Assembly: GCF_900100335.1 (NCBI RefSeq) | Contig: NZ_FNFE01000001.1 | Location: 868,001 to 932,000, forward strand | Direction: 5' to 3' | Length of the DNA: 64,000 bases | Origin: Natronorubrum texcoconense | GTDB taxonomy: Archaea > Halobacteriota > Halobacteria > Halobacteriales > Natrialbaceae | Shown here: positions 36,078-64,000 of the stretch, piece by piece | Position numbering within the stretch: the first letter of the stretch is position 1 | How the letters are laid out: each line of letters opens with the position of its first letter | Made by a program: the position numbers and the translations under genes | The notes under the pieces: generated by a model | The model's database searches: none | What the model was told of the DNA's origin: nothing | Seen by the model: only the letters and a program-made list of their open reading frames with translations

Positions 36078-36310
36078 TGCTTCGGTAGGGACTCGAATTA
36101 TGCGAAACGCTCATTACTGCTCGTGATTCTCTACTTCAAGTCTCCGATCATACACTTTTTGTCAGCTACGTTCGCAAAAATGCTCCGTCAGGGATTTGAA
36201 CTACGCGAAACACTCGCTACGCTCACGTTTCTCTAATTCAAATCCAGGGTCGCATTTTCGGCTCACGAGGTTGTTCGCCGAGAAGTGCTCCGTCAGGGAT
36301 TTGAACCCTA
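36078..36310 (-). repeat. Three tandem ~104-bp units carrying tRNA-Glu 3' ends
   Basis: Copies begin at 36078, 36181 and 36286. The last two share an exact 21-nt match (36181-36201 and 36286-36306) that is the reverse complement of a tRNA-Glu T-arm/acceptor end; the first is diverged. In each of the first two units the tail is followed by its inverted partner (GGATTTGAA at 36192-36200 with TTCAAATCC at 36237-36245) around a GAAAC/GTTTC stem. The architecture matches the unit downstream of tRNA-Ser at 20103-20180. Confidence 0.75.
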
Positions 36311-36320
36311 GTCATTGCCG
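36286..36320 (-). pseudogene. 3' fragment of tRNA-Glu
   Basis: On the minus strand this reads ...GACTAGGGTTCAAAT-CCCTGACGGAGCA, i.e. variable loop, T-arm and the 3' acceptor strand of haloarchaeal tRNA-Glu. The matching 5' strand GCTCCGT and the anticodon arm are absent in the flanking 300 bp. Such a lone tRNA tail is what the distal attachment site of an integrated element looks like; the intact tRNA-Glu should lie outside the window. Confidence 0.6.
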
Positions 36321-36670
36321 TGAGAGTCCGCTCTGATTGAAAGACCGTTCAGACGACTCTCAATCCCCCGAAATCGCCGACGACCGTGATTTCGGCCCGT
36401 TCAGTCACAACTGACGGTCGCTTCCTATATAAAAACCCGCGAGTTTGCCCCTCGGGCAAAGCCGACTCGCATAGCCCCGTTGTTATGCGAACCGGATCGA
36501 CTTCCAACGGCAGCGCGACCCGAATAGCGCTAAGGCTAGGTTTGTCATGACTCAGTGGCCTGTGTCGAAGCCCTCAGACCAAGGTGTTTCTCCCTCCAGT
36601 GATCAAGCCGTAGCTTAGAAGCGTGGGTGGCATCCCACTACTTACCTATCTGGCGACCCGCGGGTATACA
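36311..36670. other. Gene-poor boundary with hairpins, TATA box and micro-ORFs
   Basis: This 360-bp stretch holds several hairpins: TGAGAGTC/GACTCTCA arms at ~36,320-36,360, CCGAAATC/GATTTCGG at 36369-36396, and TTTGCCC/GGGCAAA at ~36,444-36,460. It also has a TATA-like CTATATAAAA at 36425-36434 and two micro-ORFs of 21 and 23 codons (36485-36550 and 36547-36618) that overlap in an ATGA. The second frame is open back to 36475 and may be the tail of a decayed gene. I see no intact gene. Confidence 0.5.
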
Positions 36671-46577: not shown

Positions 46578-47039
46578 ATGTCGACACTACTTGTTCAATC
46601 CTGCTCGAAATCCAAAAAACAGACGCCTGAACCCATTTCTGCACTCGATTTGTACTCAGGCTACTTCTTCAAAATTATAAAAAAGTCGAGAAGAGAGGGG
46701 ACAGTGAACTCTGATATAGATATAGGAATTTTGTCTGCAAAATATGGATTCGTCAAAGCTAATGAAAAAATATCGGCATATGACCGCAAAATGGATACTC
46801 AGCGTGCGACAGAACTTGGGCCGACAATGAGGCAGCAGCTACACCAATATATATCTAACATGGGATATGAACGGGTCGTAATCAATGCTGGTAAAGAATA
46901 TCGTAAAGCGATTGACGGGTTCGACAATGATCTATCTGTCAATACGTACCACGTATGTGGTGATGGACTTGGCCTAAAAGGGCAATCATTGAAACAATTC
47001 CTGAGAGGAAATGAATCGGGTATCAAGAGAGCAAACTAA
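46578..47039 (+). CDS. DUF6884-like protein linked to the TGT paralogue
   Basis: The 153-residue protein starts MSTLLVQSCSKSKKQTPEPI. The pattern CSKSK, an aromatic helix, then IGILSAKYGFVKANEKISAYD matches DUF6884. It also recalls the core of archaeosine synthase ArcS, which has CSxSKPYS and a downstream LG(L/F)V...YD strand. ArcS acts on the preQ0 nitrile in tRNA, so a role in processing a preQ0-type base is plausible (inference). It is the first gene of a three-gene operon; its TAA shares a base with the next ATG (TAATG). Confidence 0.7.
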   Translation: MSTLLVQSCSKSKKQTPEPISALDLYSGYFFKIIKKSRREGTVNSDIDIGILSAKYGFVKANEKISAYDRKMDTQRATELGPTMRQQLHQYISNMGYERVVINAGKEYRKAIDGFDNDLSVNTYHVCGDGLGLKGQSLKQFLRGNESGIKRAN

Positions 47040-48277
47040 TGTCTAAGTCAATTATATCACCTGTCGATTTCGAAGTGACGTCGACAGCTGGCGATGCTCG
47101 AGCAGGGTTACTCTCGGTTGGAGAGACGGTTATTCAGACGCCAAATCTATTTCCTGTATTGAATTTTTACGGTGGTGGCACAATAAACAGCAACTACGGT
47201 GGTGGAATTCACCGAACTATCAAAGAGTTCCTGATAGGTCACAGCCGAGTTGACGGTGGTGATTACTCGAGGTTCTTTGATGGGGTGATGACGTCCGTTT
47301 CGTCGCTGACTGACTACAATATTACTCGAGAACGGTATGACGACTATGTTTCCCAGCCTGTCAAAGAACGCGACCTCTTCTCACCTTTTTCTGGAGCCTT
47401 ATTTATCGATTCTGGAGGATTCAAATTCCTCAGTAGCAAGGAACTCGACGGGAGCAATTTCCAAATCGAGATTGATCAAAAGAAGGTCTACGAGATTCAG
47501 CAGAAGATGGGTGCAGATATAATTGTCAACCTTGACCGACCGATTGCACCCGATGATACGCACAAACAACGTATCGAGAAAGCTCAGCAAACCGGGGCGA
47601 ACATCGCAAAGTTCCTCGAATTATCGTCTGACTTCCACGGTGCCCGATATCTAACACTTCATGGTTACAACTATTCCATGATGGATGAGTTTCTCACTGA
47701 GATCACCCGCTATACGAGCGCTGAAACGCTTCGGTCAGCTTTTGATGGAATTGCCTTAGGGAGTCTCGTTCCGAAAAAAGATGACCGGAACGCACTCATT
47801 GACGCCGTTATCGACTGTCGTGCTGTTCTCAAAGATTGGGGGTTCAAGGAACTACCGCTCCACGTTCTTGGAATCTCGAGCCGGGCGATCCCGCTTCTCG
47901 TCGCACTTGGAGTGGATACCTTCGACTCATCAACATACCTCCAAACCGCCATAAACGGTGGATATTGTACGTCATTGATGGAGACGGTAGACGTTTCCGA
48001 GGCAAATCCCGAACAGTGTGACTGTCCTGTCTGCTCATCAGAGCATCTGAAAGAGTGGATGAGAGGAAATGCACCCTATCAGAAAGACATGCTAGGGGCG
48101 GTTGCGATGCACAACTTAATAGTTCAAAAGCGAGCAATCTTTGAAATACGTGACCGAGTCAGACGTGGTGAAACTGAACCGCTAATTGAATACATCGAAT
48201 CAACCGTGGCGCAGGATAAACCAACGCGAGACCACGCGCACCGTGTTGTCAACCACTCACTTGGAGGGTACTTCTAA
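47039..48277 (+). CDS. dpdA: DNA-type tRNA-guanine transglycosylase paralogue, DpdA-like
   Basis: The 412-residue TIM-barrel transglycosylase has catalytic Asp124 in FIDSGGF and nucleophile Asp296 in GVDTFDSSTYL. The zinc site is Cys327, Cys329, Cys332 and His358 (CDCPVC, then MHNL); IQQKMGADIIVNLD and ALGSLVP are further TGT motifs. It lacks the C-terminal PUA domain of archaeal tRNA TGT and is shorter. Genes of this type (DpdA) insert preQ0 into DNA in bacterial Dpd clusters. Here it sits between a DUF6884 gene and a GHKL ATPase gene, with TAATG overlaps on both sides, and near dpdJ/dpdK-like genes. DNA, not tRNA, is therefore the likely substrate. Confidence 0.85.
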   Translation: MSKSIISPVDFEVTSTAGDARAGLLSVGETVIQTPNLFPVLNFYGGGTINSNYGGGIHRTIKEFLIGHSRVDGGDYSRFFDGVMTSVSSLTDYNITRERYDDYVSQPVKERDLFSPFSGALFIDSGGFKFLSSKELDGSNFQIEIDQKKVYEIQQKMGADIIVNLDRPIAPDDTHKQRIEKAQQTGANIAKFLELSSDFHGARYLTLHGYNYSMMDEFLTEITRYTSAETLRSAFDGIALGSLVPKKDDRNALIDAVIDCRAVLKDWGFKELPLHVLGISSRAIPLLVALGVDTFDSSTYLQTAINGGYCTSLMETVDVSEANPEQCDCPVCSSEHLKEWMRGNAPYQKDMLGAVAMHNLIVQKRAIFEIRDRVRRGETEPLIEYIESTVAQDKPTRDHAHRVVNHSLGGYF

Positions 48278-49842
48278 TGAAAAAGAATCCGAAAGTTAAC
48301 GAGGTTAATGAATTTCTCGAGATTGCCAGCGACTTCGAAGACCCACTCGAGGTGATCCGGGAATCACTATCGAACGCTTACGACGCGAATGCATCAACCA
48401 TCGAAATTGAAATCAGAAGCCGTGAAATGGGCTCTGATATCATCATCGACGACGATGGCGACGGAATGACCTTGCGTGATCTCGAGTCGTTTTTTGATTT
48501 AGGGAACTCACGAAAGACGGATTCGATCGGGTACAAGGGCCACGGTACGAAGATATTCTACAAGAGCGATCGCATCGTTGTTAATACTGCTTCTGATGAG
48601 GCGAATCTCCGCGCAGAGATGGACGAACCTTGGAAGAAGCTCAACCAAAGAGAGCTTCCACAGTATGAGGTGACCGAAACACCAGTTAGGAAAGGGAACT
48701 CCGGGACGAGGATTCGAATCCGAAACTTTCGATCCGGACAAGGGTTCGATCCGGAATCGCTCACCTATAACAAAATTGAACATTATCTGAAGTGGAAAAC
48801 GATCGCCGGATCAACGGCGTATCTGTTCGATGACGAGGACCGGGAGATGAACATCACAGTAAAGTTGGGTGACGAAATCGACGATTCCAGATCCAAACTA
48901 GAAACGACGACTCGGTTCGAATTCCCCGAGGAACAACTTGACCCCGACACGTCTTCGGAATTCCCAGCCGAGAGGATGTGTAAGCACTACGAGCCGACCG
49001 AAGTTGAGGTGGAACACGATGGTGGCACAGCGACATTACAGATAGTCGGCATGGTTGGTGGGAAGGCCGCCCGAAACGAACTGCCGACTTACGGTAAGCA
49101 CTCCGCACAGTTTGGTGTCTGGCTGGCGAAAGATCACATCAAGGTCGAGCGCCTGAATGAAGCGATTTCACACGACAACGAGTTCCTTCATTTCTTCTTC
49201 GTTGTCAACTGTCAGGATATCGAACTCTCAGCAAACCGGGAGTCGATTCGGAACAAATCCAGTTCTGTGTACCAGCGGCTCACAGAGGAGGCCGAATACT
49301 ATCTTTCGAAGGTTACCCAGGATCCGTGGTTCAAAGAGTACCTCGAGGTTCGTCGAGATGCCGAAATCAAGCGTCGTGCCCGAAACCGCCGGAGTTCATT
49401 GAAGGAACGTCGAGAACGCGTCGAATCAGGGCAATCGCTCGACCCAACCAATCGAACGGAGGTCCTGCTCGCACTCGAGCGCTTCAACGGTAAATCGGAT
49501 GCTTCGACGATTATTGTCGAGGATTTCGAACCCAGCGCCGATGTTCATGCAATAGTGAGACAAGGTGGTAAACTCAGAAACGCAGCTGTACATCATTCTC
49601 TAACGGATCACTTTGAGGATGATCTCACATTCGAAGAAGTTAATCTCATCATCTGCTGGGAGTATGGCGACCCCACAACGCTGCGTGAATATGAACGAAC
49701 GGGTTATCTTGGTGGCGAGATTGAATTTCAACTCGAAAGTAACGGGCTCGTTTACGAAGACGACGGACAGTCTTTCATCGAAATCCTCTGTCTGAATCAG
49801 GAGTCCGATGAAGTGACGCGGCAAGCGGTCATCAGCGACTGA
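48277..49842 (+). CDS. GHKL (HSP90-like) ATPase of the dpd-like operon
   Basis: This 521-residue protein has an N-terminal Bergerat-fold ATPase: N box RESLSNAYDANA (Glu29, Asn33), G1 IIIDDDGDGMT, and G2 GYKGHGTKIFY (~85-95). A transducer-like second domain (~220-310: HIKVERLNEAISHDNEFLHFF, VNCQDIELSANRESIRN) follows, as in HSP90/MORC/MutL-type proteins. Residues ~345-390 are a basic helix. The C-terminus (~400-521) is a restriction-endonuclease-like alpha/beta region with IICWEYGD. It may couple ATP to recognition of modified or unmodified DNA. I cannot match it to a lettered bacterial Dpd protein. Confidence 0.8.
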   Translation: MKKNPKVNEVNEFLEIASDFEDPLEVIRESLSNAYDANASTIEIEIRSREMGSDIIIDDDGDGMTLRDLESFFDLGNSRKTDSIGYKGHGTKIFYKSDRIVVNTASDEANLRAEMDEPWKKLNQRELPQYEVTETPVRKGNSGTRIRIRNFRSGQGFDPESLTYNKIEHYLKWKTIAGSTAYLFDDEDREMNITVKLGDEIDDSRSKLETTTRFEFPEEQLDPDTSSEFPAERMCKHYEPTEVEVEHDGGTATLQIVGMVGGKAARNELPTYGKHSAQFGVWLAKDHIKVERLNEAISHDNEFLHFFFVVNCQDIELSANRESIRNKSSSVYQRLTEEAEYYLSKVTQDPWFKEYLEVRRDAEIKRRARNRRSSLKERRERVESGQSLDPTNRTEVLLALERFNGKSDASTIIVEDFEPSADVHAIVRQGGKLRNAAVHHSLTDHFEDDLTFEEVNLIICWEYGDPTTLREYERTGYLGGEIEFQLESNGLVYEDDGQSFIEILCLNQESDEVTRQAVISD

Positions 49843-49943
49843 GTCGACAAATAAATTCGTTCGAGAACTCTTATGCGGGTACAGCGAAGTAGACGCACTC
49901 TACTCCCGATCATGACGGAACAAGAAACCGCGCCGCTTTCTGT

Positions 49944-50396
49944 TTAGAAATCAGAACAGTGGATGTCGAGCTCTGTTTCAAGATACGCTTCGATACTTTC
50001 GTATTCGTTCTCGATGATCTCACAGAGTTCGCGGTTGAGAGAGAAGCCTCCTCGAGTGATGTTTGCAGACCCCATGTACACGTATTCGTTACAGATCACG
50101 GCTTTCGCATGGAGGTCGTCGAGTTCGATGAGGGTAATATGATCAGGCAGTCTGCGACGAAGATAGTTGTTGTGTGATTCACCCTTCTTAACGATGATCA
50201 TCACCTCCGTTTCTGGTAGCTGGTGGAGTGCCTTGGATAGACGAAGCGTACGGTCTTCGAGAGCGTTCGTCACCGGGAACTTGAGTTCAACATCGCTCAT
50301 CCACGGCGAAACGATTGCGACCCGTCGGGCATGGACGAGCGTGTACCCGATGAAATACGCGAGGCTGTTAGAAGTCAATGAAAACGCTTGTACCAT
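49944..50396 (-). CDS. dpdK: Phospholipase-D-fold protein, DpdK-like
   Basis: The 150-residue protein has one HKD-type motif: HAKAVICN (His96, Lys98), followed by GSANITRGGF. The expected aspartate of HxKx4D is Asn103 here. The N-terminal strand VAIVSPWMSD and VMIIVKKG complete the PLD core. DpdK in bacterial Dpd clusters is a PLD-fold protein of the restriction module. The gene starts inside the end of the dpdJ-like gene (29-nt overlap), so the two are co-translated. The Asn substitution may lower or alter nuclease activity. Confidence 0.75.
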   Translation of the reverse strand: MVQAFSLTSNSLAYFIGYTLVHARRVAIVSPWMSDVELKFPVTNALEDRTLRLSKALHQLPETEVMIIVKKGESHNNYLRRRLPDHITLIELDDLHAKAVICNEYVYMGSANITRGGFSLNRELCEIIENEYESIEAYLETELDIHCSDF

Positions 50397-53300
50397 CTAT
50401 CTCACCTGCGGGCGGAAGCTCTCGGTCGAACATAGCGCTGGTAGCGTTTTCAGAGGGGACTGTAGTAAGGATGAAATCACGGAGTGCCTCGAGCACCACA
50501 TAGCTTAACGAGTCATTCTGATCGTGCCCGGAAATACATTCCGAGAGATGGAGGTTCTCGACGCAGCCATCGATGTCCGGCGAATAGAACATCGTCTCGA
50601 CGCGATCGAGGTCATCGATATCAATCTTAAGTGCCGATACTTCACCCTCTGGGAATTCGTCTGCACCGTCAACCTGCTCACGAGCGACGACGTGTTTAGT
50701 TCGGATTGCTTCGTCCAGCGTTACACCTTCATCAGTCTTGAACTGACGACAGCGATCGACGGTCGAAATGATTTCCTCCTCGACGCGGTCGATGACGTCG
50801 TCGTAGAGTACTTCGAGGTGAGATTCGATTAGGCCCCGTATCCGATCGTCCGCAGTACTTTCAGCGAGAACTTCGTCGACGAAGTCTTCATCTGCCCATA
50901 GCCGCTCGGCGATCACCTGTTCGTTGTACGTGAGCCGGGCAATTGCCTCGAGGACGGAACCGGGATCGGTCCGTAGTTCTTCATACACTAAATCAACAAT
51001 CCCTTGGCCGCCTTCCGATCGTTCAAAGACGTAGACCTCGCCTTTCTCTTCGTCGAAGCCGTAGAGCAGCATTGTGGTATTGACGCTGCTCACGTCTGCA
51101 GTCAGCTGTAAGAAGAAGTGAGCGGCCGTGTGATAGAGCAGGTGGTGGTAATCAACTTCGGCGAGATCCTTGTACTGTGCCACCTCAGCGCGAAGATTGT
51201 CCTCGATACTCGCGAGGAACGGTTGGATGTCGAAGACGAGGCCTCTCGTTTCGAGTTGGAAGCCAAGTGGTGTGTCCGGGCTCGAGATTTCACGTTGGAA
51301 GCGGTCTCTCGAACTATCGAAATGATAGCCGATGTCCGGACCCATCGGCTTTGCAGGTTTGATATCCAGTGTTACTCCAGCGAGTTCGATCGCGGCCGTG
51401 AAATCTGCGAGCGTCAACGTGCCCGTGGACTCCTCTGTAATCCGTTCCGTGACTCGAGTGTTGACGTTTGCGGTCGAGTGGATCTTTCCGTATGCGCGAT
51501 CGTCGTGGCGGAGACACGAATCGAGGTCAGTGAGGATCTGGAGGCACTCGGGACAGTACCGGACGATGTTGAGTGCTCGATCGCCCGTGAGATCAGTGAT
51601 TTCGCTCGTCCGTATCGTCTCCGGAACAAGCATTCCGTCCCGCTCTTCTCCCGAAATATCTTTCTTGAATTCAAATTCTACCCCATCTTCGGTCACCCTC
51701 GTTCGTGGCAAGAACGCTTGCATTACACCTGAGTCAGACTGGTACTCGCTTCTGTACGGAGCATGCGTGCTTACCAGCTGGTCAATTGACTCTTCAGTCC
51801 CTTCACGGTCGTTCTCTCCACGGAAGACGGTAACGTAGCGTCCAGTGTCGCCATAGTAATTGGGTGGAACGTACCAGACGTCCCTGGCGAGTCGATCCCC
51901 ATCGACTCGTAGATAACGGTCGACGTAGTACGCTGCCCTCAACAGATGTTTTACTGCGAATACACTGAGATACGGTGTGTAGTAGTCGACGTACTCCTCG
52001 AGTTCACTCAGCGCGGATTGTAGGTAATAGACACGCCGCTGAGTGCGGTAGAATTCAGCTAGCCTGTCATCGGTGGTGAGCGCGTCGAGTTGATCGACTG
52101 CCTGCTGAACCGCCTGCAGTTCATCCATATTCACCGTCGGCACCGATCGATCAGTCGCAGCGTTAGCAGCGGTCCGGAGATGGATGAGGTCACCGGTACA
52201 ACGGAAGATATCCGCAAGAAGAACGGAAAAGTGTTCTACCCGATCTGAAGGCGGTCCTTCGGCCGACGAGGCTTGCTTACGGATGTTTTCGAGTGTGTTC
52301 CGTAGTTCGCGAGCGTTCTCTTCGTAATTAGAATCCCCTGCTTCACGAAGTACTGATTCATACCCTCCGGTTTGACCCAGGAAGGCCTTTACTAGCGTCA
52401 GTATCTCCTCTTGAACATCGTCGAGATGTGAATTGATAGCGTCGGATCCCCGGACAATCTCGCCACCATTGACGTCAAAGTAGCCTTCGATATCCTCGAA
52501 CTCATCTTCAATCTCTCGAACATGTCTCGCGAGGTCCTTGCGAACCTCTTGGACGATTTCTTCCGATAACAGTGATTCACTCGTGACCTCAATATCGAAC
52601 GCTTCTTCGAAGAAGGCGCTCGGCTCATCGATCATGTGGTAGACGCGATCGAAGCCGAGATCGTCGACGAGATACCCATCGAGAAACGCGAGATGGGACT
52701 CACGCTGTGTGATGTACTGGTGACGGTTTTCCCTGACCTCTGAGGCCCGATTGTAGTACTTGCGAAGGCACTCGTGGATCCACTCGACGACGCTATTATC
52801 CGTTTTCAGGGGAGTTCGAATCTCGGATCCAAGGAACCGATCGGCTCGATAGAACATGTTGGCATCCCCGGTGAGATTTGAGAGGAAGACGGCGATGTGT
52901 GCGTCCATTCCCGGTTCCCTCGCTGCTCTGCCTGCTCGCTGGAGGAACGACGAGAGGTTCCACGGAGTCCGGTACTGGGTGACGATTTTGATCTCCCCGA
53001 CGTCGATCCCGACCTCCAAGAACGACGTCGATAGAAGGACATCGCTCTCCGATGCCGACTCGGAGTCGAAACCTGCGTCCGAATAGACTGGCATGAACGA
53101 CAACGGTTCGTCGATGTACGCGTGGTTCATCTGGTCAGCGAGCCATGGCCAGTCGTCGGTCGCTTCTCGATCGGTGTGATACCGCCAGAGTTCGCGATCT
53201 CCGTCGGCGTCCTCGAGCTGGATCCGTTTCTGGTTCACCTGCGAGATACTGTCGATGAACCCTAGGAGCTTGCTTCGATCGCCGTTCTCGTCCTCGAGAA

Positions 53301-54456
53301 GACTGTGGCCCAGCATCATGTGCTGCTGGATGGACATCGGAGCCGCACCGGGGCCATCAGAGTCAGCGAGCAGGAAGTAGTAGTGCTCGCGGTCGTCGTG
53401 ATCCTCATCGAAGTCGGATGCTGGCGGCTCTTCCGTTACGATGTCGTCGGACGAAACGTCGAACAGACGCTTCCCGAACCGGTTCGCGTTATCGATCGTT
53501 GCACTCGATCCCAGCCACAGGATTGGATCGTTGGAAGCGTCGTTTACGTTCTTGATTACATTGGCTGCGTGCGATCCCCGTAGCTGGGTGTAGAGATGAA
53601 CCTCGTCGAGAACGATCGTGTCGATCAGGTCGACCAGCGGATAATTCGGCTTGAGAGCGAATCCTTCCAGGGACTCGAGGGTCGTGAGGATGATGTTCGG
53701 CTGGTTGTTCGAGACGAGTTCTTTTCGGGCGAGAGTTAGGTCTCGGTCAGTGAACGTATGCTCTTCAGGGTGTTGCTCACACCGCAGTTCGTAGGATCTG
53801 GAGGAGCCGTGGAATTCTAGTGCGTTCGATCCATCCCCACACCAGCAGTTCGTCAGTCTGAACCGCGGTGGGACCTGCGATTGATCGAAGAACCGTCCGT
53901 TTCCGGAAACATCACCGAGCTCGTATGGCTGTTGGCCGACGTAAACACCTGCCGATAGTTCGTCCCCAGTCTCTTCACGAATAGTATGGATGTGCTCGAG
54001 GATACGGCCGAGCTGGTCCTGAAGTAGTGCCCGGCTCGGGTAGACGATTGCAACGGAGTCCTGGCGTCCTTCACGAAGGAGTTGATAGAGTGGGCCGAGG
54101 AACGCCTCGGTCTTTCCGAAGCCAGTGGGTGCGGAGAAGATTGCGGCTTTGGTCCGACCGTCGTCTCGTTGGGCGCGCTCGAGTTCGTCGACCGTTTGCC
54201 AACTGTTCTTTTGGAAGTCTAGTGGATCGAAACCGAAAACCTCGATGATGTCTTTGACGAACTGATCGTTGCCGTCATAGGGAGATGTCTGGCGACGCTT
54301 CTGTTGCTGAGAAGCGTATTTGAGTGCGCCCGTGAGGAATGTAGCCTCATCTTGATCAGCATCGAAGAGCTGGCGATTATGGAGAAAAGACTGGATGAGC
54401 GGCCGGACTTCGGGATTTAAACGGTTGGGATCAGTATTCCGGTCAATGTGTTGCAT
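50368..54456 (-). CDS. dpdJ: Giant SF2 helicase, DpdJ-like
   Basis: The 1362-residue ATPase has Walker A SAPTGFGKTEAF (109-116), DEVH box TIVLDEVHLYTQ (284-287), motif III GSSATIDN and motif VI LQRAGRAAREPG (506-513). A cysteine cluster (NCWC and CEQH, ~204-226) is inserted between motifs Ia and II. A second zinc-like set, YCPECLQILTDLDSC, and a DUF1998/MZB-like region (HLLYHTAAHFFLQLTADVS to RSEGGQGIVDLVYEEL) follow. This is the layout of DpdJ, a helicase of the 7-deazaguanine restriction module. It faces the dpdA operon convergently and overlaps dpdK. Confidence 0.82.
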   Translation of the reverse strand: MQHIDRNTDPNRLNPEVRPLIQSFLHNRQLFDADQDEATFLTGALKYASQQQKRRQTSPYDGNDQFVKDIIEVFGFDPLDFQKNSWQTVDELERAQRDDGRTKAAIFSAPTGFGKTEAFLGPLYQLLREGRQDSVAIVYPSRALLQDQLGRILEHIHTIREETGDELSAGVYVGQQPYELGDVSGNGRFFDQSQVPPRFRLTNCWCGDGSNALEFHGSSRSYELRCEQHPEEHTFTDRDLTLARKELVSNNQPNIILTTLESLEGFALKPNYPLVDLIDTIVLDEVHLYTQLRGSHAANVIKNVNDASNDPILWLGSSATIDNANRFGKRLFDVSSDDIVTEEPPASDFDEDHDDREHYYFLLADSDGPGAAPMSIQQHMMLGHSLLEDENGDRSKLLGFIDSISQVNQKRIQLEDADGDRELWRYHTDREATDDWPWLADQMNHAYIDEPLSFMPVYSDAGFDSESASESDVLLSTSFLEVGIDVGEIKIVTQYRTPWNLSSFLQRAGRAAREPGMDAHIAVFLSNLTGDANMFYRADRFLGSEIRTPLKTDNSVVEWIHECLRKYYNRASEVRENRHQYITQRESHLAFLDGYLVDDLGFDRVYHMIDEPSAFFEEAFDIEVTSESLLSEEIVQEVRKDLARHVREIEDEFEDIEGYFDVNGGEIVRGSDAINSHLDDVQEEILTLVKAFLGQTGGYESVLREAGDSNYEENARELRNTLENIRKQASSAEGPPSDRVEHFSVLLADIFRCTGDLIHLRTAANAATDRSVPTVNMDELQAVQQAVDQLDALTTDDRLAEFYRTQRRVYYLQSALSELEEYVDYYTPYLSVFAVKHLLRAAYYVDRYLRVDGDRLARDVWYVPPNYYGDTGRYVTVFRGENDREGTEESIDQLVSTHAPYRSEYQSDSGVMQAFLPRTRVTEDGVEFEFKKDISGEERDGMLVPETIRTSEITDLTGDRALNIVRYCPECLQILTDLDSCLRHDDRAYGKIHSTANVNTRVTERITEESTGTLTLADFTAAIELAGVTLDIKPAKPMGPDIGYHFDSSRDRFQREISSPDTPLGFQLETRGLVFDIQPFLASIEDNLRAEVAQYKDLAEVDYHHLLYHTAAHFFLQLTADVSSVNTTMLLYGFDEEKGEVYVFERSEGGQGIVDLVYEELRTDPGSVLEAIARLTYNEQVIAERLWADEDFVDEVLAESTADDRIRGLIESHLEVLYDDVIDRVEEEIISTVDRCRQFKTDEGVTLDEAIRTKHVVAREQVDGADEFPEGEVSALKIDIDDLDRVETMFYSPDIDGCVENLHLSECISGHDQNDSLSYVVLEALRDFILTTVPSENATSAMFDRELPPAGEIDGTSVFIDF

Positions 54457-54611: not shown

Positions 54612-55082
54612 ATGGGAGAACTTGCAACCCGGTACCAATCATATCTGTGTAATCAGTTTTCTGAATTATATCCCTCATTAGATTGGAAAACAGAACATAG
54701 AATTGCAGGTACCCCAGTTGACATTGCTGGTGTTGGAGATGGGATACTCCTTGTTATCGAATTAGAATGGCGCCGTGCCGACCCAGCGGATAACTCTGCC
54801 AAGCTTTTCCGACATTTAAGCACTGGACAGGTTGATCAGAATCACGTCACTGTCATCCAAATCTTCACAGGATATTACGATTTGGAGACTGGTGGAGTCT
54901 CATCAAAGAGAAAGAATGCAGAGTTCATCGGTCACATTGCAGAGGACGCAATTGATGCACTTTCCTATTACTCCGTTGACTTTGACCCTGAACCGCCAAA
55001 GCGAGGTGGCGATTGGGAGGAAGACTGGAAAGCGAGCGCAAAAGAAACTGTGTCTGCCATTTCTGAAAAAATCCGAACGTAA
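54612..55082 (+). CDS. Putative PD-(D/E)XK-fold protein
   Basis: The 156-residue protein begins MGELATRYQSYLCNQFSELY and has the arrangement TPVDIAGVGDGILLVIELEW (Asp37, Glu50, Glu52). This resembles the PVD...hhhxE-x-K/E core of restriction-like nucleases, with glutamate where lysine is usual. NHVTVIQIFTGYYDLETGG and a basic Ser/Lys stretch follow. It stands between the dpdJ-like gene and a second helicase gene on the latter's strand. A small nuclease partner of that helicase is the best guess. Confidence 0.55.
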   Translation: MGELATRYQSYLCNQFSELYPSLDWKTEHRIAGTPVDIAGVGDGILLVIELEWRRADPADNSAKLFRHLSTGQVDQNHVTVIQIFTGYYDLETGGVSSKRKNAEFIGHIAEDAIDALSYYSVDFDPEPPKRGGDWEEDWKASAKETVSAISEKIRT

Positions 55083-55188: not shown

Positions 55189-57696
55189 ATGAAAATCGGA
55201 GATATCGCAGACAACGTCACAGATCAATCAAGTCCCGGCGAGCTATTTCGAGACAACTGGTTAGGTTCGATTCCTGAGGCACAATGGCCCTCGTATATCG
55301 ACGAATCAGCTGATCTCCTTCAATACGGTATCGGAATAGGAGAAACTAACTTAACAAAGGCTGATTTTGCGAGTGAAACAGGTGAGTACTATCGAGAGGG
55401 CCTGGGAAAGTCGATGTCCGTAGACTACGAAGAGACGACGCTTCCCCTCGGCTACGTTTCCGGACGAAAAGTCGGACTCGTTGCGTGGATGTTGACGGAA
55501 CTTCAGCGCGAAATTCGTTCGTCAAAAACGACGAATTTTAAATCATCAAGTCGCGCTCTTGAAGCGATCGTGAACAAGGCTCTATTGCAGTCTTTCGAAG
55601 GCGATGACTCCCTCGACGCAAAAGGGATTGATCGTATTCGTCTGCCAAAAAGCGTTGCAGTCTCAGATCTCGTCTCTGAGATTTTCTGTCGGCCACGAAG
55701 TCCCCAGTACGTCGAGGCGATTGTCGAGGTTGCGACTGGGTACCGGCGTTCTACGAAAAGCCTCCTCGAGCTAGTCGAAGAGCCGCAAATGGTCACTCCA
55801 TTCTGGGAACACCAACGAAAGGCCCTCTCACGATGGCTCAAGAACGATTGCAGAGGATACGTGGATATGGCGACTGCAACTGGAAAGACTGTCCTCGGTC
55901 TCGGAGCAATCGCGCACCACTTCGGAAAATTACACCCCATTGATCGAGAACTCACCGAACCAAATTTGCAGCCGAGTGATCAACGAGGGACAGTTCTAGT
56001 CGTTGCTCATCGTACGGTAATACTCGAGCAGTGGAAACGCGAGTTCGACCATCGATTGAACATCCCGGAAGCGAGTACTACGACCGGCGGCGAAGAGACT
56101 GTCTCCTTCTCATGGGGGGATGTCCACTTCTGGACGCCGAAGCGCGTTCTCCAACGTGGCGTCCCTGACGCTGACCTCGTCGTACTCGACGAAACACATC
56201 ACTATCTGGGCGATAGTGGCTTTGGATCGATACTGAACGAGTTCGACGGCGACGTCGTCGCGTTGTCCGGCTCGATTGACGAAACGAATGCGCGGACACT
56301 AGAGCGTCGCAACATCGAGAAACTGCTTACCTTTACGCTGCGCGATGGACAGAGGGCAGGAATCGTCCCGCGCTGTGACTGGAAGGTACACCTCGTCCCC
56401 TACGAGGGACAGTCGGTTCTCACCGACGTGACTGAGCGTTGCCAGCAGGGTACCGAACGGTTCTCTGATGGCGGTCCCGAAGATGTAATGCAGGAGCTGG
56501 ATCGAGATCCATCCGAGGTCGCGTTCGAAACCCTCCACGAGGCTCGATCGGTGGTACAGTCTACAGCAGGCCGTGAGATCAAAAAGAAACATGACGGCTA
56601 TCGCGAGTTCTCATCGGCAGTGAAATCACGGAATTTGACGAAATACAATCTTTCTCCGGAGCTATCGGAGATTACGAACTTAGTCCTAGAGTCCGTTACA
56701 GATCACAAGTGCGTAGTGTTGCTCGAATCCGGGGATGAGATCGAAACCGTCGTATCGGGACTTCGCCGTGAACTCGGCGACGAGTTCGATGACTACATCC
56801 AAGTCGTTTGGGAGAGTGCGGACGATACGATCGAGGTCGTTCGTGAATTTGATGAAAACCAAAAGTCAGGGGCGATTATTGGGACGGCATCCGTTCTCGG
56901 AGAGGGTGTCGACATACAAACGGCGGACGTGGGGATCAATCGGGCCAGGGGTCGACTTAGTCGATCGTTAGTCCAACGCATGGGTCGTATCCTCCGAAAC
57001 CCAGATGGTGACAAGGAAGCGGAGTTCCACCACATCATGGGGATTCCCACCACAAGCACTGCTCTCCTCCCTCAGGAAGACGGGATCGAATTGCTCGAGA
57101 CGGCGAGTCAATTGTTAGCTTGGGGTTCATCGTTCGAGGCACAACCAACGTTCGAGACACGATCGGCGGATGTCGCCGAAACGATCTGGCAGCTCGAACG
57201 AGAGGGTGCAAACGCTATCGACGACCTAGCCCCGCACAATTATAGTTGGCCATCCGATCGTGAGGTTCGGTCACACCTCGAACAGCTGTGTGCGGACGCG
57301 ATTGACGCCGAATCGTCGGTTCTCTTGGCTCTCGAGGACACGAGCGAGTCTGTCTCTAGTTCTCCAGAAGAGAGCGCTCTAAACTTCGTCAGCGGTGTCG
57401 AGATGGAAGCAATCCCGATTGCCACGGATCTATGGAAGAAAGTATCGAGTACAGTCGCCGATAGCCGAAATTGGGACGATGAGCAAGAATTCGTCGCAGA
57501 GGCGATCAGGGAGCATCTTGACGAGATAGACACTCCCGATTTACCAGTGGTGGGCGAAGACGGGACCGAAGAGCCCAGATTTGTAGAACTGAATCCCGTT
57601 CTCTACGCAGTCGTTCAATCTAAAGTTGTAGATGGAGTCAATACCTCTACGATTGTCCGAGCGGCTGTAGAACGGGAATTAAGACTTGGGGAATGA
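55189..57696 (+). CDS. SF2 helicase/translocase of XPB/ResIII type
   Basis: The 835-residue ATPase has a ~200-residue nonconserved N-terminal domain, then FWEHQRKALSRWL (Q motif), Walker A ATATGKTVLGLG (GKT 232-234) and LVVAHRTVILEQWKREF. The DETH box is VVLDETHHYLG (334-337), and motif VI is SRSLVQRMGRILRNPDG (~625-640). The C-terminal 40 residues (LYAVVQSKVVDGVNTSTIVRAAV) look like a ribbon-helix-helix. Defence islands often contain such restriction-type translocases. It may power the small nuclease-like protein upstream or belong to the Dpd restriction set; no letter can be assigned. Confidence 0.8.
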   Translation: MKIGDIADNVTDQSSPGELFRDNWLGSIPEAQWPSYIDESADLLQYGIGIGETNLTKADFASETGEYYREGLGKSMSVDYEETTLPLGYVSGRKVGLVAWMLTELQREIRSSKTTNFKSSSRALEAIVNKALLQSFEGDDSLDAKGIDRIRLPKSVAVSDLVSEIFCRPRSPQYVEAIVEVATGYRRSTKSLLELVEEPQMVTPFWEHQRKALSRWLKNDCRGYVDMATATGKTVLGLGAIAHHFGKLHPIDRELTEPNLQPSDQRGTVLVVAHRTVILEQWKREFDHRLNIPEASTTTGGEETVSFSWGDVHFWTPKRVLQRGVPDADLVVLDETHHYLGDSGFGSILNEFDGDVVALSGSIDETNARTLERRNIEKLLTFTLRDGQRAGIVPRCDWKVHLVPYEGQSVLTDVTERCQQGTERFSDGGPEDVMQELDRDPSEVAFETLHEARSVVQSTAGREIKKKHDGYREFSSAVKSRNLTKYNLSPELSEITNLVLESVTDHKCVVLLESGDEIETVVSGLRRELGDEFDDYIQVVWESADDTIEVVREFDENQKSGAIIGTASVLGEGVDIQTADVGINRARGRLSRSLVQRMGRILRNPDGDKEAEFHHIMGIPTTSTALLPQEDGIELLETASQLLAWGSSFEAQPTFETRSADVAETIWQLEREGANAIDDLAPHNYSWPSDREVRSHLEQLCADAIDAESSVLLALEDTSESVSSSPEESALNFVSGVEMEAIPIATDLWKKVSSTVADSRNWDDEQEFVAEAIREHLDEIDTPDLPVVGEDGTEEPRFVELNPVLYAVVQSKVVDGVNTSTIVRAAVERELRLGE

Positions 57697-57725: not shown

Positions 57726-60452
57726 ATGCAACAACAGATGGAAAAGAACCTTTCAGCAGCAAAAAAGTACCATACTATAGCAAATTTATCCCATTATGTA
57801 TTTTTGTTCATACTGTTCGTGACTATTACAAGTGTAGTTATACCCGGTACCCCTTGGTGGCCGTTTGCAGCCCTTTCGGTCGGGGTCTTCCTGATTAAAG
57901 GAAAACTTACTAGTTTGAGAGATACTCACGCTAACCGTCTCCTCGAAAGCTGTGTGTCGAACTGCAATGAATTGACCGATGATACCGCCAAAGCTATCGA
58001 CAAAGAAGATATAACCACTGCTCGCCAGCGAGCTCGAGAGTGCGCAGAGACGGCAAGTAGAGTCGAAAAGCAGGTCTCCCAATTCAAGAAAAAAGACGGC
58101 TCGGACGAACAACAGCTGCAAGAGCTACGACATCATCACAAACGATCTACCAATCTAGTCGAGTTCCTTGACGAAAATCTGGAGGGGATACAGCAAGCAG
58201 TACGCAACCTAGAGCGCGTAGAGAAAGGGGCCAAAGAGGCCTATCAATTGCTCGCAGACGGGGAACTGCAAGCCGCATCTAACACATTAGATCAGTATCA
58301 GGGTGCACTACGAGAATTGCACGACCGACCCCCGCTCGCTGATCAGAAGGAACTGCATGGTCTCGACTCACAGATTGAAATGTTGATCGAGACCTACGAA
58401 ACACTTGAGCAACGTCTCGAGTTTACGCCAGTCGTCAAGCGGCTAGAGGGCGTACTCGCGGAAACCGATATCATCCGAAACAAACAGGGAGACCGTGTCG
58501 ATACCGATACTCTCCAGAATGCGGTTGAGCAGTTAGAAATAATAGAAGACGCTATCGAAGAGCCTGACCACGCCTTCTTTCTAATCAAGCATACTGAATT
58601 ATCCCTTCCTGAATTAGACGACGTGTCAGGAATTGGAAAGGGGTATCGCGCACGCTTAGAGAAGCATGGAATCTCCACACCAGAGGAACTGCATCAATCA
58701 AATTCGTTGACCGGTATAGATAGTATTGGTCGAAACCGCGCCAAACAGTTTCAGGAGGCTGCAGGACAGGCAGCTATCGACTGTATTTCTGATCTTCGCT
58801 CAGATTTGGAAGAGCGGATTGAACGCCGTGAGCAAGCTAGCAACCAGCTTACGTATGCGGAACGTCGCTACCGGATTGCATGTGACCATCTGGACCGCCA
58901 GTACTTCTCCGATGTAGACCAAGAGCTTACGAAAGCAAAGGAAGCACTCGAGTCGGTTCCGGCCTCAGGATTACAACCTGAGGAGCGTACACAGTTCGAG
59001 AAACTAGAGGCAAACATCGAGAAAAAGCGGGCGGAACTCCGGACGGAGAGACTCCGAAAGGAGTTCGAAGATGCATTAGACGAAATTGACACGTATATCG
59101 CCGAGGGGCGTACCGCGCTAGAGAACGAGTCATTCGATGCCGCGACGGGAAAATTCGGTTACGCTACACAGTGTTGTAATAATGCGAAAGAGATCACTTC
59201 CAAAGTGGACGACGGGGAGCAGGCGATCTATTCTCGACGAGAAAAGGTCAACGACCTGCTCGAGGAAACACGCAATCGCCGTCAAAAGCACCGTGTCTTA
59301 GATTCGATGTCAACTGCTGAAACACAAATCAGTGATGGAAACTACCGCGTCACTGACGGTTCGTTCTCCGAGGCGATAGAGAACTACAATGAGGCGATCG
59401 ATTACCTACAGCGGGCGCGTCAAACTGCAGAAGAGAACGAGTTGAGCTATACATGGGAAATCACCGAGCGACTCGAGCAGGTAGAGCAGTATCGCCACCA
59501 CGCGGTTCAAGAACGCGAACGGCAGCATGAGGAGAGGAGGGAGGAAGCAGTATACAAACTCGACCGTGCCGAACAGCTCATCGAGAAGGGGCATCAGCAT
59601 CTGGAGGTCGACGACGTCGATGCGGCGGTCGAATCACAGCAAACAGCCGCCACCCTCGTAACCGAAGCGACCGCATTGTTTGAGGAAGTCGATATCCTGG
59701 AAACTACCGAGCATCGTGATAGAATCGATACTCTCGATCAATCCGTCTCTCGGCTGGATTCATCGATAGATCAAACTGCAGAAGAGGCGTTGCAGGCCGG
59801 AGGTCCTAGCCGACAACAACTCATCCAGTATCTTCAGGACCTCGCAGTGATGTTCGATGAATCGCCGAGTGAGGATTTCATGAGAGAGTATGGGAAATAT
59901 TCTATCGACGAATATTATGCTGCATTTGGTTCCTGGACGGATGCGCTCAGAGAGGCAAACCTCTCCCCGATTGATCAGGCAGCTCGGAACCGACGGAAAT
60001 ATTCTCGAGCGGACATTCTTGATGCAGTCGTCGAGTTAGCAGAACAGCTCGGCCACAATCCCTCCCTAATGGAAATGAATCGGAAGGGCTCAATTTCGGG
60101 TACCACAGTGGGTACCCGATTCGGAGATATGGATACAGCCATCGAACTTGCAGGCCTGAAGGATGTCACCCTAGAATACTCTGAAACAGACATCGAGGAA
60201 GATACCAACGAAGAGGAGGTGACTGCGACGGTTACCACTGAACGAACTACGACTACGGCGGAACCGTCGGAGGCTGATCTCGAGGAGCTAACGGAAGTCA
60301 GCGGTGTCTTCCAATCAGATGCGGCTGCCCTCGCAAAAGATGGATACACATCGAGAGAGAAACTCAAAGAAGCATCTGCAGAGGACCTTCAGGCAATCGA
60401 CGGGATCGACATTCAACTGGCATTGCGGATCAAAGCTGATATTGAGGATTAG
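57726..60452 (+). CDS. Membrane-anchored coiled-coil protein with HhH and homing-endonuclease-associated repeats
   Basis: The 908-residue protein has two membrane helices near the N-terminus (~20-38 and ~44-58). A long charged coiled coil with TPR-like helices fills ~60-690. A helix-hairpin-helix pair lies within it at ~296-350 (VSGIGKGYRARLEKHGI, GIDSIGRNRAKQF). Two homing-endonuclease-associated repeats (~695-820: AAFGSWTDALREANLSP and ADILDAVVELAEQLGHNP) follow, then a C-terminal HhH (~850-908). It starts 29 nt after the helicase gene. Shared C-terminal domains with the next gene show duplication. It looks like a DNA-binding protein tethered to the membrane; its role is unknown. Confidence 0.78.
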   Translation: MQQQMEKNLSAAKKYHTIANLSHYVFLFILFVTITSVVIPGTPWWPFAALSVGVFLIKGKLTSLRDTHANRLLESCVSNCNELTDDTAKAIDKEDITTARQRARECAETASRVEKQVSQFKKKDGSDEQQLQELRHHHKRSTNLVEFLDENLEGIQQAVRNLERVEKGAKEAYQLLADGELQAASNTLDQYQGALRELHDRPPLADQKELHGLDSQIEMLIETYETLEQRLEFTPVVKRLEGVLAETDIIRNKQGDRVDTDTLQNAVEQLEIIEDAIEEPDHAFFLIKHTELSLPELDDVSGIGKGYRARLEKHGISTPEELHQSNSLTGIDSIGRNRAKQFQEAAGQAAIDCISDLRSDLEERIERREQASNQLTYAERRYRIACDHLDRQYFSDVDQELTKAKEALESVPASGLQPEERTQFEKLEANIEKKRAELRTERLRKEFEDALDEIDTYIAEGRTALENESFDAATGKFGYATQCCNNAKEITSKVDDGEQAIYSRREKVNDLLEETRNRRQKHRVLDSMSTAETQISDGNYRVTDGSFSEAIENYNEAIDYLQRARQTAEENELSYTWEITERLEQVEQYRHHAVQERERQHEERREEAVYKLDRAEQLIEKGHQHLEVDDVDAAVESQQTAATLVTEATALFEEVDILETTEHRDRIDTLDQSVSRLDSSIDQTAEEALQAGGPSRQQLIQYLQDLAVMFDESPSEDFMREYGKYSIDEYYAAFGSWTDALREANLSPIDQAARNRRKYSRADILDAVVELAEQLGHNPSLMEMNRKGSISGTTVGTRFGDMDTAIELAGLKDVTLEYSETDIEEDTNEEEVTATVTTERTTTTAEPSEADLEELTEVSGVFQSDAAALAKDGYTSREKLKEASAEDLQAIDGIDIQLALRIKADIED

Positions 60453-60769
60453 AAGAGGATGTCGAACTTCACTTTCGGAGCCGATGTCCGATCACGGATG
60501 AATTTCGGGTACAGGAGGGAATATTTAACCGTTTCTGAGATAGACATCTACCGTAATCAAATTCAACTGTCTCCATGATAAGACCGCCGACTCTCATATT
60601 GTTGCATCTAACGAGTATCCGAAGCCAACCAAAGCGGGAGCTTTTCGGATCGACTTCGGCACGTCTACTAACGGATGGAGGGCATAAACTCACGGAACAA
60701 CAGGATGGAGAAGACGTAGAAGAAGTTGGTGGGTTCGTCTTTGGACAGGTAGAAGACAGAGCCAGTTTC
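60453..60769 (+). promoter_or_regulatory. Upstream region of the DUF5797-fusion gene
   Basis: 317 bp. GAATATTTAACC at ~60,518-60,529 is a good TATA box, predicting a transcript start near 60,548. A frame in phase with the next gene is open from ATG 60575, so the protein may have 65 more N-terminal residues than annotated, or the message has a ~220-nt leader. No other gene is seen. Confidence 0.45.
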
Positions 60770-62403: not shown

Positions 62404-62964
62404 CTAGTTCGCATGGAGTAACCAGAGTTGCACGTCCTTGAGGCAACCGTCATCAAGCGAAATAATCCGATAGGTGGCCGAGTGACGCAACGTATGGAGA
62501 GTGACGTCCTTGAAATCGCCGATATCACCGCCGGCGACATGAGTGCGGACGTCGTCCTCGGTCGCAGGCTTTTCGACCAGGCGCTGGAGCGACCGAGTGG
62601 TGAGGCGGTCGCTCGAGCGGGTGGGAAAGAGGGCGTCGGTGTCTTTCCAGCGGTCGCGAAGGTATCGCCGGAGTAGTCGGACAGTGTCGTTCGCGAGGTA
62701 CACCGTCCCGGCCTCGAGTTCGACATGGTCGACGTCGAGGGCGCACACTTTGCCGACGCGAAGGCCGGCGTCATAGAGGAGCGCGACTATCGCCTCGTTT
62801 CTATCTTGAAAATACGTCGGGACGGAGCCGGATAGGCATATGTCCCGGAGCTGTTCGACCTGTTCGGGTTTCAACCAGGTACTGGCACGCCCGTCGCTAT
62901 CGGTGTGTTGAACGTCGGTATGTGTCGTCGATCGTTCACTGGACGGTGTAGCACACTCGGTGTA
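62404..62964 (-). pseudogene. Decayed tyrosine recombinase (integrase)
   Basis: The recognisable piece runs from a frame without a start (SERSTTHTDVQHTDSDGRAS, then WLKPEQVEQLRDICL) through the catalytic Arg region YDAGLRVGKVCALDVDHV to HTLRHSATYRIISLDDG and a stop after LWLLHAN. The C-terminal part with the nucleophilic Tyr is missing, and no in-frame ATG or GTG precedes the N-terminus. It matches haloarchaeal XerC/D-type integrases. It lies to the right of the dpd-like island, where an element's integrase would be expected. Confidence 0.7.
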
Positions 62965-63800: not shown

Positions 63801-63850
63801 CGGTGAAGCTCGAATCCACAAATAAAGGAAACAACGTATGAGCTTCACCG
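63801..63850 (+). promoter_or_regulatory. Inverted repeat enclosing a start codon
   Basis: CGGTGAAGCT (63801-63810) is the exact reverse complement of AGCTTCACCG (63841-63850). The 30-nt loop holds AAAGGAAAC and the ATG at 63838. In RNA this hairpin would put the ribosome-binding region in the loop and the first codons in the stem, a possible translational switch. Confidence 0.55.
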
Positions 63851-64000
63851 CATCCGGATACCACCACGGTATCACGACGGACACAGTTAGCATCGGAACG
63901 CTGCTCGCGCGCGACCAGGTTTACAAGATGGTCGACAACCAGCGTCCTGTCGCCTGGGGCGCCGAGCAGATGCAAGAAAACTTCGACGACGTCGACGCCC
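63838..64000 (+). CDS. N-terminus of an unidentified protein running off the window
   Basis: ATG 63838 opens MSFTASGYHHGITTDTVSIG, continuing with LLARDQVYKMVDNQRPVAWG and an acidic NFDDVDA end at the window edge (54 residues visible). A GGAA sequence 8-11 nt upstream could serve as a ribosome-binding site, which is unusual where leaderless genes dominate. The GC-rich codons contrast with the AT-rich DNA just upstream. I do not recognise it. The long structured leader suggests a highly expressed or virus-derived gene, but this is speculation. Confidence 0.65.
   Translation, partial: MSFTASGYHHGITTDTVSIGTLLARDQVYKMVDNQRPVAWGAEQMQENFDDVDA

What the first reader, a model, noticed from the sequence alone, without database searches (positions are those of the whole stretch)
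46578..54456. Archaeal Dpd-like 7-deazaguanine DNA modification and restriction island
Seen: a TGT-fold protein with intact catalytic Asp124/Asp296 and CxCxxC...H zinc site but no PUA domain, in a TAATG-coupled operon with a DUF6884-like protein and a GHKL ATPase, facing a giant SF2 helicase gene that overlaps a PLD-fold gene. Known: in bacterial Dpd clusters DpdA is a TGT paralogue that puts preQ0-type bases into DNA, and DpdJ (helicase) and DpdK (PLD) belong to the restriction part. Inference: this is an archaeal, compact Dpd variant lacking recognisable DpdB, DpdC, DpdD, DpdG, DpdH and DpdI here, using archaeal preQ0 made for tRNA archaeosine.
Basis: partly seen in the sequence, partly recalled or inferred. 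Interest (0 to 1): 0.92.

Follow-up and report, generated by a model that had tools for sequence, protein, structure and literature searches.

The report
Haloarchaeal DNA-base-swapping defence island (BRIGADE)
A salt-loving archaeon carries a mobile DNA island that probably marks its own DNA with a tRNA-type modified guanine and attacks DNA lacking the mark; the kind was predicted in a 2025 preprint, but no case is proven, and this one comes with an unexpected ATPase partner and a second base-swapping enzyme.

Summary
A DUF6884 protein, a TGT-fold enzyme without PUA and an intact GHKL ATPase form a TAATG-coupled operon facing a DpdJ-type SF2 helicase and a DpdK-type PLD protein. The TGT does not group with tRNA TGTs, but it is not a Dpd DpdA equivalog either. 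This is not a compact, self-contained Dpd: the DUF6884 protein is itself the DpdC-type component. The missing parts (DpdH-like ATPase, second YprA helicase, a second TGT fused to an ArcS-type domain) lie 2-15 kb past the window end, on one 54-kb element integrated at tRNA-Glu. Together they match BRIGADE Type I, a haloarchaeal system predicted in a 2025 preprint. In 292 haloarchaeal genomes the TGT occurs in 30; the GHKL gene is in exactly those 30, directly downstream. The fused TGT is in 27 of 30, against 1 of 262 others; preQ0-synthesis genes sit beside 11. Most likely the TGT inserts preQ0 into DNA with the GHKL ATPase in the place of DpdB, DUF6884/ArcS-type domains convert the nitrile, and the helicase-nuclease part attacks unmarked DNA. 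No chemistry is shown; the modified base and the role of the GHKL protein are inferred.

The parts
46578..47039 (+). DUF6884 protein (153 aa), DpdC/YaaA/ArcS-type domain; predicted nitrile-processing enzyme acting on dPreQ0
   Evidence: Pfam DUF6884 1.4e-14; PADLOC DpdC 1.5e-5; hhalign to bacterial DpdC 76%; model pLDDT 93.8, nearest folds AF0587 (Z 11.0) and YaaA DUF328 (Z 10.3)
47039..48277 (+). TGT-fold base-exchange enzyme (412 aa), no PUA domain; predicted DNA guanine transglycosylase
   Evidence: Pfam TGT 5e-28; catalytic Asp and zinc ligands invariant; own clade apart from tRNA TGTs; hhalign to bacterial DpdA 91%
48277..49842 (+). GHKL ATPase (521 aa), MORC/MutL-like; predicted ATP-driven partner of the TGT
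   Evidence: HATPase_c_3 3.7e-12; N, G1 and G2 box residues invariant in 17 relatives; present in exactly the 30 of 292 genomes with the TGT, directly downstream; model fits MutL/SMCHD1/GyrB ATPase modules
49944..50396 (-). PLD-fold nuclease, DpdK-type (150 aa), single HxK...GSxN motif
   Evidence: NCBIfam DpdK 2.1e-13; hhalign DpdK 98.7%; motif conserved in relatives
50368..54456 (-). YprA-family SF2 helicase of the Dpd branch, DpdJ-type (1362 aa)
   Evidence: NCBIfam DpdJ 3.8e-40, PADLOC DpdJ best hit; hhalign DpdJ 100%, E 1e-38
54612..55082 (+). 156-aa protein, possible accessory nuclease (conserved TP[VI]D...ELEWRRADPADN), present in 6 of 31 relative neighbourhoods
   Evidence: no family hit
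55189..57696 (+). SF2 helicase of the DndR/PbeA type (835 aa), possible accessory restriction helicase
   Evidence: PADLOC PbeA 1.8e-24, NCBIfam dnd_restrict_1 2.6e-16, DpdE 8e-7; relatives in about a third of the neighbourhoods
36280..36326 (.). left copy of the perfect 47-bp direct repeat (attL-like); the right copy lies in the 3' half of tRNA-Glu(CTC) at contig C2:958677-958723, beyond the window, and bounds a 54.4-kb integrative element

Best explanation
The finding is the insertion half plus the DpdJ-DpdK pair of a BRIGADE Type I-like defence system carried by a tRNA-Glu-integrated mobile element. Proposed working: (1) the host preQ0 pathway (in other strains local queD-queE-folE-queC) supplies preQ0. 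(2) The PUA-less TGT swaps guanine for preQ0 in DNA, with the GHKL ATPase opening, clamping or scanning DNA in the role that the unrelated ATPase DpdB has in bacterial Dpd. (3) The nitrile is then processed by the DUF6884 protein (DpdC-like, to the amide) and/or by the second TGT fused to an ArcS-type DUF5591 domain (lysine adduct or archaeosine-type), which may also lock the base in. (4) Two YprA helicases, the DpdH-like ATPase and the PLD nuclease degrade incoming DNA without the mark. Shown here: homologies, intact catalytic residues, obligate gene linkage, island structure. Inferred: DNA as substrate, identity of the final base, role of the GHKL protein, restriction of unmarked DNA.
For: TGT clade separate from tRNA arcTGT and bacterial TGT (100/99), while the genome's own arcTGT falls inside arcTGT. 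Specific profile matches to bacterial Dpd proteins taken from annotated plasmid islands: helicase = DpdJ 100%, PLD = DpdK 98.7%, 973-aa = DpdH 98.2%, TGT ~ DpdA 91%, DUF6884 ~ DpdC 76%. Linkage in 292 genomes: GHKL 30/30 vs 0/262, TGT-DUF5591 fusion 27/30 vs 1/262, DpdH-like 19/30 vs 2/262. preQ0 operon beside 11 of 31 neighbourhoods, P about 3e-11 under a simple uniform model. DUF6884 domains fused to bacterial and haloarchaeal DpdA and DUF5591 fused to TGT with the ArcS motif PCSxxKPY in 27 of 27. A Haladaptatus plasmid has DpdJ-DpdK-DUF6884-TGT-GHKL collinear. Published BRIGADE definition.
Against: No chemical or genetic data. By profile the TGT scores far higher to tRNA arcTGT (111 bits) than to DpdA (21 bits), and to solved arcTGT (1.6e-28) than to the solved DNA transglycosylase 7UI4 (E 0.33), so DNA specificity is not read from homology. 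The two halves are about 12 kb apart in this genome and could be separate systems. Eleven of 30 genomes with the TGT lack the DpdH-like gene. The 278- and 232-aa proteins match DpdG and DpdI by position only (17.8% and 1.5%). The GHKL role rests on linkage alone.
Confidence: 0.72

Rival explanations
1. The GHKL ATPase belongs to the restriction side: like the paraMORC GHKL proteins of other R-M operons it loops DNA between recognition and cleavage sites, and the TGT needs no ATPase partner.
For: paraMORC GHKL proteins occur in R-M operons with SF2 helicases and nucleases and were proposed to loop DNA (PMC2292703); the P3 fold resembles MutL/SMCHD1/MORC modules.
Against: The GHKL gene follows the TGT in 30 of 30 genomes whether or not the restriction block is present (DpdH-like in only 19 of 30), and never occurs intact without the TGT. 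A second haloarchaeal TGT module has a different ATPase in the same operon position.
Confidence: 0.3
2. The TGT modifies RNA or protein rather than DNA, for instance as the TGT-like Cap10 found in CBASS loci may do, and the nearby helicase and nuclease are a separate system.
For: The closest profile by score is tRNA arcTGT; Cap10, a TGT-like protein of a defence system, matches at 3e-4; TGT chemistry is the same on RNA.
Against: No PUA domain; not in the tRNA clade; linked to DpdJ/DpdK/DpdH-type DNA restriction proteins; the genome already has its own arcTGT, ArcS and RaSEA; bacterial Dpd is the known precedent.
Confidence: 0.12
3. Two independent systems share the element: a small Dpd-like system (46.6-54.5 kb) and a separate BRIGADE block with its own fused TGT further downstream.
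For: They are about 12 kb apart with unrelated genes between; three genomes have the small module without the fused TGT; a Deinococcales MAG has DpdJ-DpdK with a fused TGT only.
Against: 27 of 30 genomes have both, most within a few kb, and a Haladaptatus plasmid has all parts contiguous.
Confidence: 0.17
4. The modification is an anti-restriction mark for the mobile element's own DNA, as in 7-deazaguanine phages, and the helicase and nuclease serve another purpose.
For: The locus lies on an integrative element, and viral 7-deazaguanine protects viral DNA from restriction enzymes (PMC6884629).
Against: Linked restriction genes of the Dpd type; no relative found in viral contigs and only three weak TGT hits of 22-24% identity in phage records.
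Confidence: 0.08

Closest known systems
BRIGADE Type I (Bell et al., bioRxiv 2025, PMC12458937), predicted, halophilic archaea only
   Same: 7-deazaguanine genes, PLD nuclease, one Dpd-branch and one ARMADA-like YprA helicase, haloarchaeal host
   Different: Nothing decisive. The main text that could be read does not mention the GHKL ATPase, the DUF6884 gene or the TGT-ArcS-type fusion; the supplement was not available. A MAG assigned to Deinococcales with DpdJ- and DpdK-type proteins and a fused TGT would lie outside the stated host range.
Dpd (bacterial dpdA-dpdK, preQ0/ADG in DNA)
   Same: DpdJ-, DpdK-, DpdH- and DpdC-type proteins; TGT-fold base inserter; partly the same gene order
   Different: No DpdB anywhere in the genome, no DpdD/F equivalents recognised, a GHKL ATPase instead, two TGTs of another lineage, an additional ARMADA-like helicase
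Archaeosine tRNA pathway (arcTGT, ArcS, RaSEA)
   Same: TGT chemistry; DUF5591 domain with the ArcS motif in the second TGT
   Different: No PUA domains; separate clade; linked to restriction genes; the host has its own tRNA set on contig C3
MORC/paraMORC GHKL ATPases of R-M systems (PMC2292703)
   Same: GHKL ATPase module in an operon with a DNA-modifying enzyme and near SF2 helicases
   Different: Here tied strictly to a TGT; no fused nuclease recognised

Membership tests
BRIGADE Type I | One YprA-family helicase of the Dpd branch plus one ARMADA-like | tested here: met
   1362-aa: DpdJ 146 bits vs DruE 39. 1576-aa just outside the window: DruE 155 bits vs DpdJ 96, with MZB/DUF1998. No ARMADA profile was available.
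BRIGADE Type I | PLD (or PD-(D/E)xK) nuclease in the neighbourhood | tested here: met
   DpdK-type PLD at 49944-50396
BRIGADE Type I | Predicted 7-deazaguanine biosynthetic cluster | tested here: met
   TGT, DUF6884 and TGT-DUF5591 on the element; que genes not local here (single clear QueC on another contig) but local in 11 of 31 relative neighbourhoods
BRIGADE Type I | BrxA-like insertion domain in the ARMADA-like helicase | not tested
   The 1576-aa helicase was not modelled (over the length limit, jobs spent)
Dpd | DpdA equivalog (NF041059, cut-off 200 bits) | tested here: not met
   21.1 bits; not nested with bacterial DpdA in the tree
Dpd | DpdB (DndB/DGQHR-type ATPase) | tested here: not met
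   No PF14072 match in the genome; GHKL vs DpdB hhalign 0.2%
Dpd | DpdC (DUF6884/DUF328-type) | tested here: inconclusive
   DUF6884 domain present, hhalign to DpdC 76% over 53 columns, PADLOC DpdC 1.5e-5
Dpd | DpdJ and DpdK equivalog cut-offs (800 and 100 bits) | tested here: not met
   137.5 and 50.2 bits: homologous, below equivalog level
tRNA arcTGT | PUA domain and membership in the tRNA TGT clade | tested here: not met
   No PUA; separate clade; TIGR00432 110.9 bits against a cut-off of 350
GHKL ATPases | Conserved N, G1 and G2 ATP-binding motifs | tested here: met
   RE(S/A)LSN, DxGxGM and GYKGHGTK conserved in all 17 sequences
DNA 7-deazaguanine system (function) | 7-deazaguanine present in DNA | not testable with these tools
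   Needs mass spectrometry

The most novel reading that the evidence does not exclude
A haloarchaeal chromosome carries an archaeosine-type base (preQ0, its amide, a lysine adduct or G+) in its own DNA, installed by two TGT-fold enzymes of a lineage separate from DpdA, with a GHKL clamp ATPase driving insertion in place of DpdB and an ArcS-type domain borrowed from tRNA modification locking the base in.
Probability: 0.35. Interest if true: 0.85.

Novelty: new member of a known kind. Interest (0 to 1): 0.6.

Why it matters
If true, archaea would use their tRNA hypermodification chemistry to mark their own genomes, a case found so far (in what I read) only in bacteria, phages and archaeal viruses. 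The obligate TGT-GHKL pair makes the question of how a TGT gets at double-stranded DNA directly testable, because DpdB, GHKL and a third, BREX-like ATPase appear as interchangeable partners. It would also help explain which host DNA chemistry haloarchaeal viruses with preQ0 pathways have to face.

Tried and rejected
(1) tRNA TGT paralogue: rejected by the trees and absent PUA. (2) DpdA proper: not met. (3) Search for the TGT in viral contigs: five pattern hits, no relative. (4) Phage records: three weak hits of 22-24% identity only. (5) A bacterial GHKL homologue on a Caballeronia plasmid: no TGT or DUF6884 beside it, so it adds no support. (6) DpdG and DpdI counterparts for the 278- and 232-aa proteins: 17.8% and 1.5%, position only. 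(7) The key earlier papers on DpdA/B/C (PMC10164549, PMC6207457, PMC4801273) were not held; what is said of DpdB and DpdC rests on PMC12839542 and PMC11888242. (8) The preprint supplement with BRIGADE gene maps could not be read. (10) One alignment call failed on wrong coordinates and one script on a file name; both were redone.
Full report
WHAT IS THERE. The + operon is coupled by TAATG at both junctions: a 153-aa DUF6884 protein (Pfam 1.4e-14), a 412-aa TGT-fold protein (5e-28, no PUA) and a 521-aa GHKL ATPase. Facing it, a 150-aa PLD protein and a 1362-aa SF2 helicase overlap by 29 bp; their best NCBIfam hits are DpdK (2e-13) and DpdJ (4e-40), both below the equivalog cut-offs. Catalytic aspartates, the aspartate D166 and the zinc ligands of the TGT are invariant in 18 aligned sequences, the relatives at 45-79% identity. 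The ATP-binding motifs of the GHKL protein are conserved in all 17 aligned.

THE REST OF THE SYSTEM LIES JUST OUTSIDE THE WINDOW. The window is contig C2:868001-932000 of a 4.64-Mb genome. About 2-15 kb past its end, on the minus strand, lie a 232-aa protein, a 973-aa ATPase (weak NCBIfam DpdH hit), 278- and 302-aa proteins, a 1576-aa YprA-family helicase with a MrfA zinc domain whose best PADLOC hits are Druantia DruE, and a 662-aa second TGT fused to a DUF5591 domain. DUF5591 is a domain of archaeosine synthase ArcS: the second TGT matches NCBIfam ArcS at 6e-34, best over its fused C-terminal part, and PCSxxKPY, found as PCSAAKPYSES in this genome's own ArcS, is present in 27 of 27 fusions.

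COMPARISON WITH BACTERIAL DPD. Annotated dpd islands were taken from plasmids of Enterobacter, Paenibacillus and Nostoc and compared by profile in an all-against-all matrix. Matches are specific: 1362-aa helicase to DpdJ 100% (1e-38), PLD to DpdK 98.7%, 973-aa to DpdH 98.2%, small TGT to DpdA 91% (1e-6), DUF6884 to DpdC 76%; the second helicase also matches DpdJ (99.2%). GHKL matches nothing (DpdB 0.2%). A paper that mined dpd islands gives DUF6884 as the Pfam domain of DpdC (PMC11888242). The DUF6884 profile also hits proteins annotated as DpdA or TGT in Paenibacillus sp. 37 (4e-11) and Halobaculum (2e-9), so TGT-DUF6884 fusions exist. The DUF6884 model (pLDDT 93.8) is nearest to AF0587 (Z 11.0) and E. 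coli YaaA of the DUF328 family (Z 10.3), above the unrelated rows (7.2 and less).

TREE. In a tree of 58 TGTs the small TGTs (100/100), the fused TGTs (96/96) and a third plasmid type lie together, separated from tRNA arcTGT plus bacterial TGT with 100/99; the genome's own arcTGT is inside arcTGT. With bacterial DpdA and phage DpdA added, the small TGTs are again their own clade and tRNA TGTs are together (94/97); long branches make the deeper order unsure. The TGT is thus neither a tRNA TGT nor a DpdA in the strict sense, though by score it is nearer to tRNA arcTGT than to the solved DNA transglycosylase 7UI4 (1.6e-28 against 0.33).

LINKAGE. Of 292 haloarchaeal genomes 30 have the small TGT. 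The GHKL gene is in exactly these 30, starting within 50 bp of the TGT, and in none of the other 262 apart from fragments in one. The fused TGT is in 27 of 30 against 1 of 262, the DpdH-like gene in 19 of 30 against 2 of 262. DUF6884 was called in 27 of the 30 neighbourhoods. Homologues of queD, queE, queC and sometimes folE lie within about 20 kb in 11 of 31 neighbourhoods. A plasmid of Haladaptatus sp. YSMS36 has everything together: 232-973-278-302-YprA block, then DpdJ-DpdK-DUF6884-TGT-GHKL in one direction, then two fused TGTs. Twenty named haloarchaea carry the operon; Natrinema salsiterrestre (91% identity) has the same local arrangement as the window.

KNOWN SYSTEM. This fits BRIGADE Type I as described in the main text of PMC12458937: Dpd-like systems of halophilic archaea with a 7-deazaguanine cluster, a PLD nuclease, one ARMADA-like and one Dpd-branch YprA helicase. 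I therefore file it as a new member of that predicted kind. The main text, as far as searched, does not mention a TGT or DUF6884 by name, nor a GHKL protein in the passages read; the supplement was not available, so I do not claim these as new.

MECHANISM. Shown: homology, intact active sites, linkage. Inferred: preQ0 from the host pathway (one clear QueC and a RaSEA gene elsewhere) is put into DNA by the TGT. In bacterial Dpd the unrelated ATPase DpdB is credited with ATP-dependent insertion (PMC12839542). No DndB-family gene exists in this genome, and the gene obligately tied to the TGT is an ATPase, so GHKL is the best candidate for that role. Two haloarchaeal plasmids carry a different TGT with a different, BREX-like ATPase in the same operon, which fits exchangeable ATPase partners. 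DUF6884 probably acts on the nitrile like DpdC. The fused ArcS-type domain may add lysine or make archaeosine: ArcS acts on bare preQ0 nucleoside and its product is no longer exchanged by arcTGT (PMC11298593), so it could lock the mark in. The rival that GHKL loops DNA for restriction, as proposed for paraMORCs (PMC2292703), is not excluded.

THE ISLAND. A perfect 47-bp direct repeat lies at window 36280-36326 and in the 3' half of a tRNA-Glu(CTC) gene at C2:958677-958723, next to a 367-aa tyrosine recombinase. Three same-genus genomes join the sequences that flank this region here (about window 33.0 kb and about C2:958.7-960.2 kb) with only about 0.9-4 kb between. The finding therefore sits on a 54.4-kb integrative element, in line with its low GC.

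Noticed in passing
window 36280-36326 and contig C2:958677-958723 (L007 tRNA-Glu 13682-13757): Perfect 47-bp direct repeat at the 3' half of tRNA-Glu(CTC) bounds a 54.4-kb integrative element with a 367-aa integrase at its right end; a 21-bp partial copy at 36181-36201 hints at a second event.
   Followed up: yes
L102 11992-15076 (Halobaculum marinum plasmid), L103 8381-15076 (Natronosalvus rutilus plasmid): A second haloarchaeal TGT module: TGT (344 aa), 300-aa protein and a BREX-like ATPase (385 aa), beside a larger DpdA-like TGT; in L102 with queC-folE-queE-queD, in L103 with a block of similar gene order to the BRIGADE restriction block.
   Followed up: partly
L163 3790-13811: A MAG assigned to Deinococcales has DpdJ-type helicase, DpdK-type PLD, a TGT of the fused type and queD-queE-queC homologues together: a BRIGADE-like set outside archaea, if the binning is right.
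   Followed up: partly
L141 9192-17046 (Paenibacillus sp. 37 plasmid): A dpd island with a 690-aa DpdA that carries a DUF6884-type domain, a second TGT-like protein and a 1055-aa P-loop NTPase that, like DpdH, matches the 973-aa ATPase of the window's island.
   Followed up: partly
window 63838-64000 and beyond (C2:931838-933643): GmrSD-type (DUF262/DUF1524) type IV restriction protein between the two halves of the system.
   Followed up: no
window 57726-60452 and 60575-62197: Two large proteins (the first with homing-endonuclease-associated repeats and helix-hairpin-helix ends) next to the system; the Haladaptatus plasmid also has a helix-hairpin-helix protein beside its restriction block (L101 1367-3544).
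   Followed up: no
window 62404-62874: Short integrase-like ORF, possibly a remnant, suggesting nested mobile elements.
   Followed up: no
G142, G028 and G290 neighbourhoods (L078, L082, L076/L077): A conserved 310-aa protein with no family match precedes the DUF6884-TGT-GHKL operon; two of these loci also have a second DUF6884 gene and none has the fused TGT.
   Followed up: no
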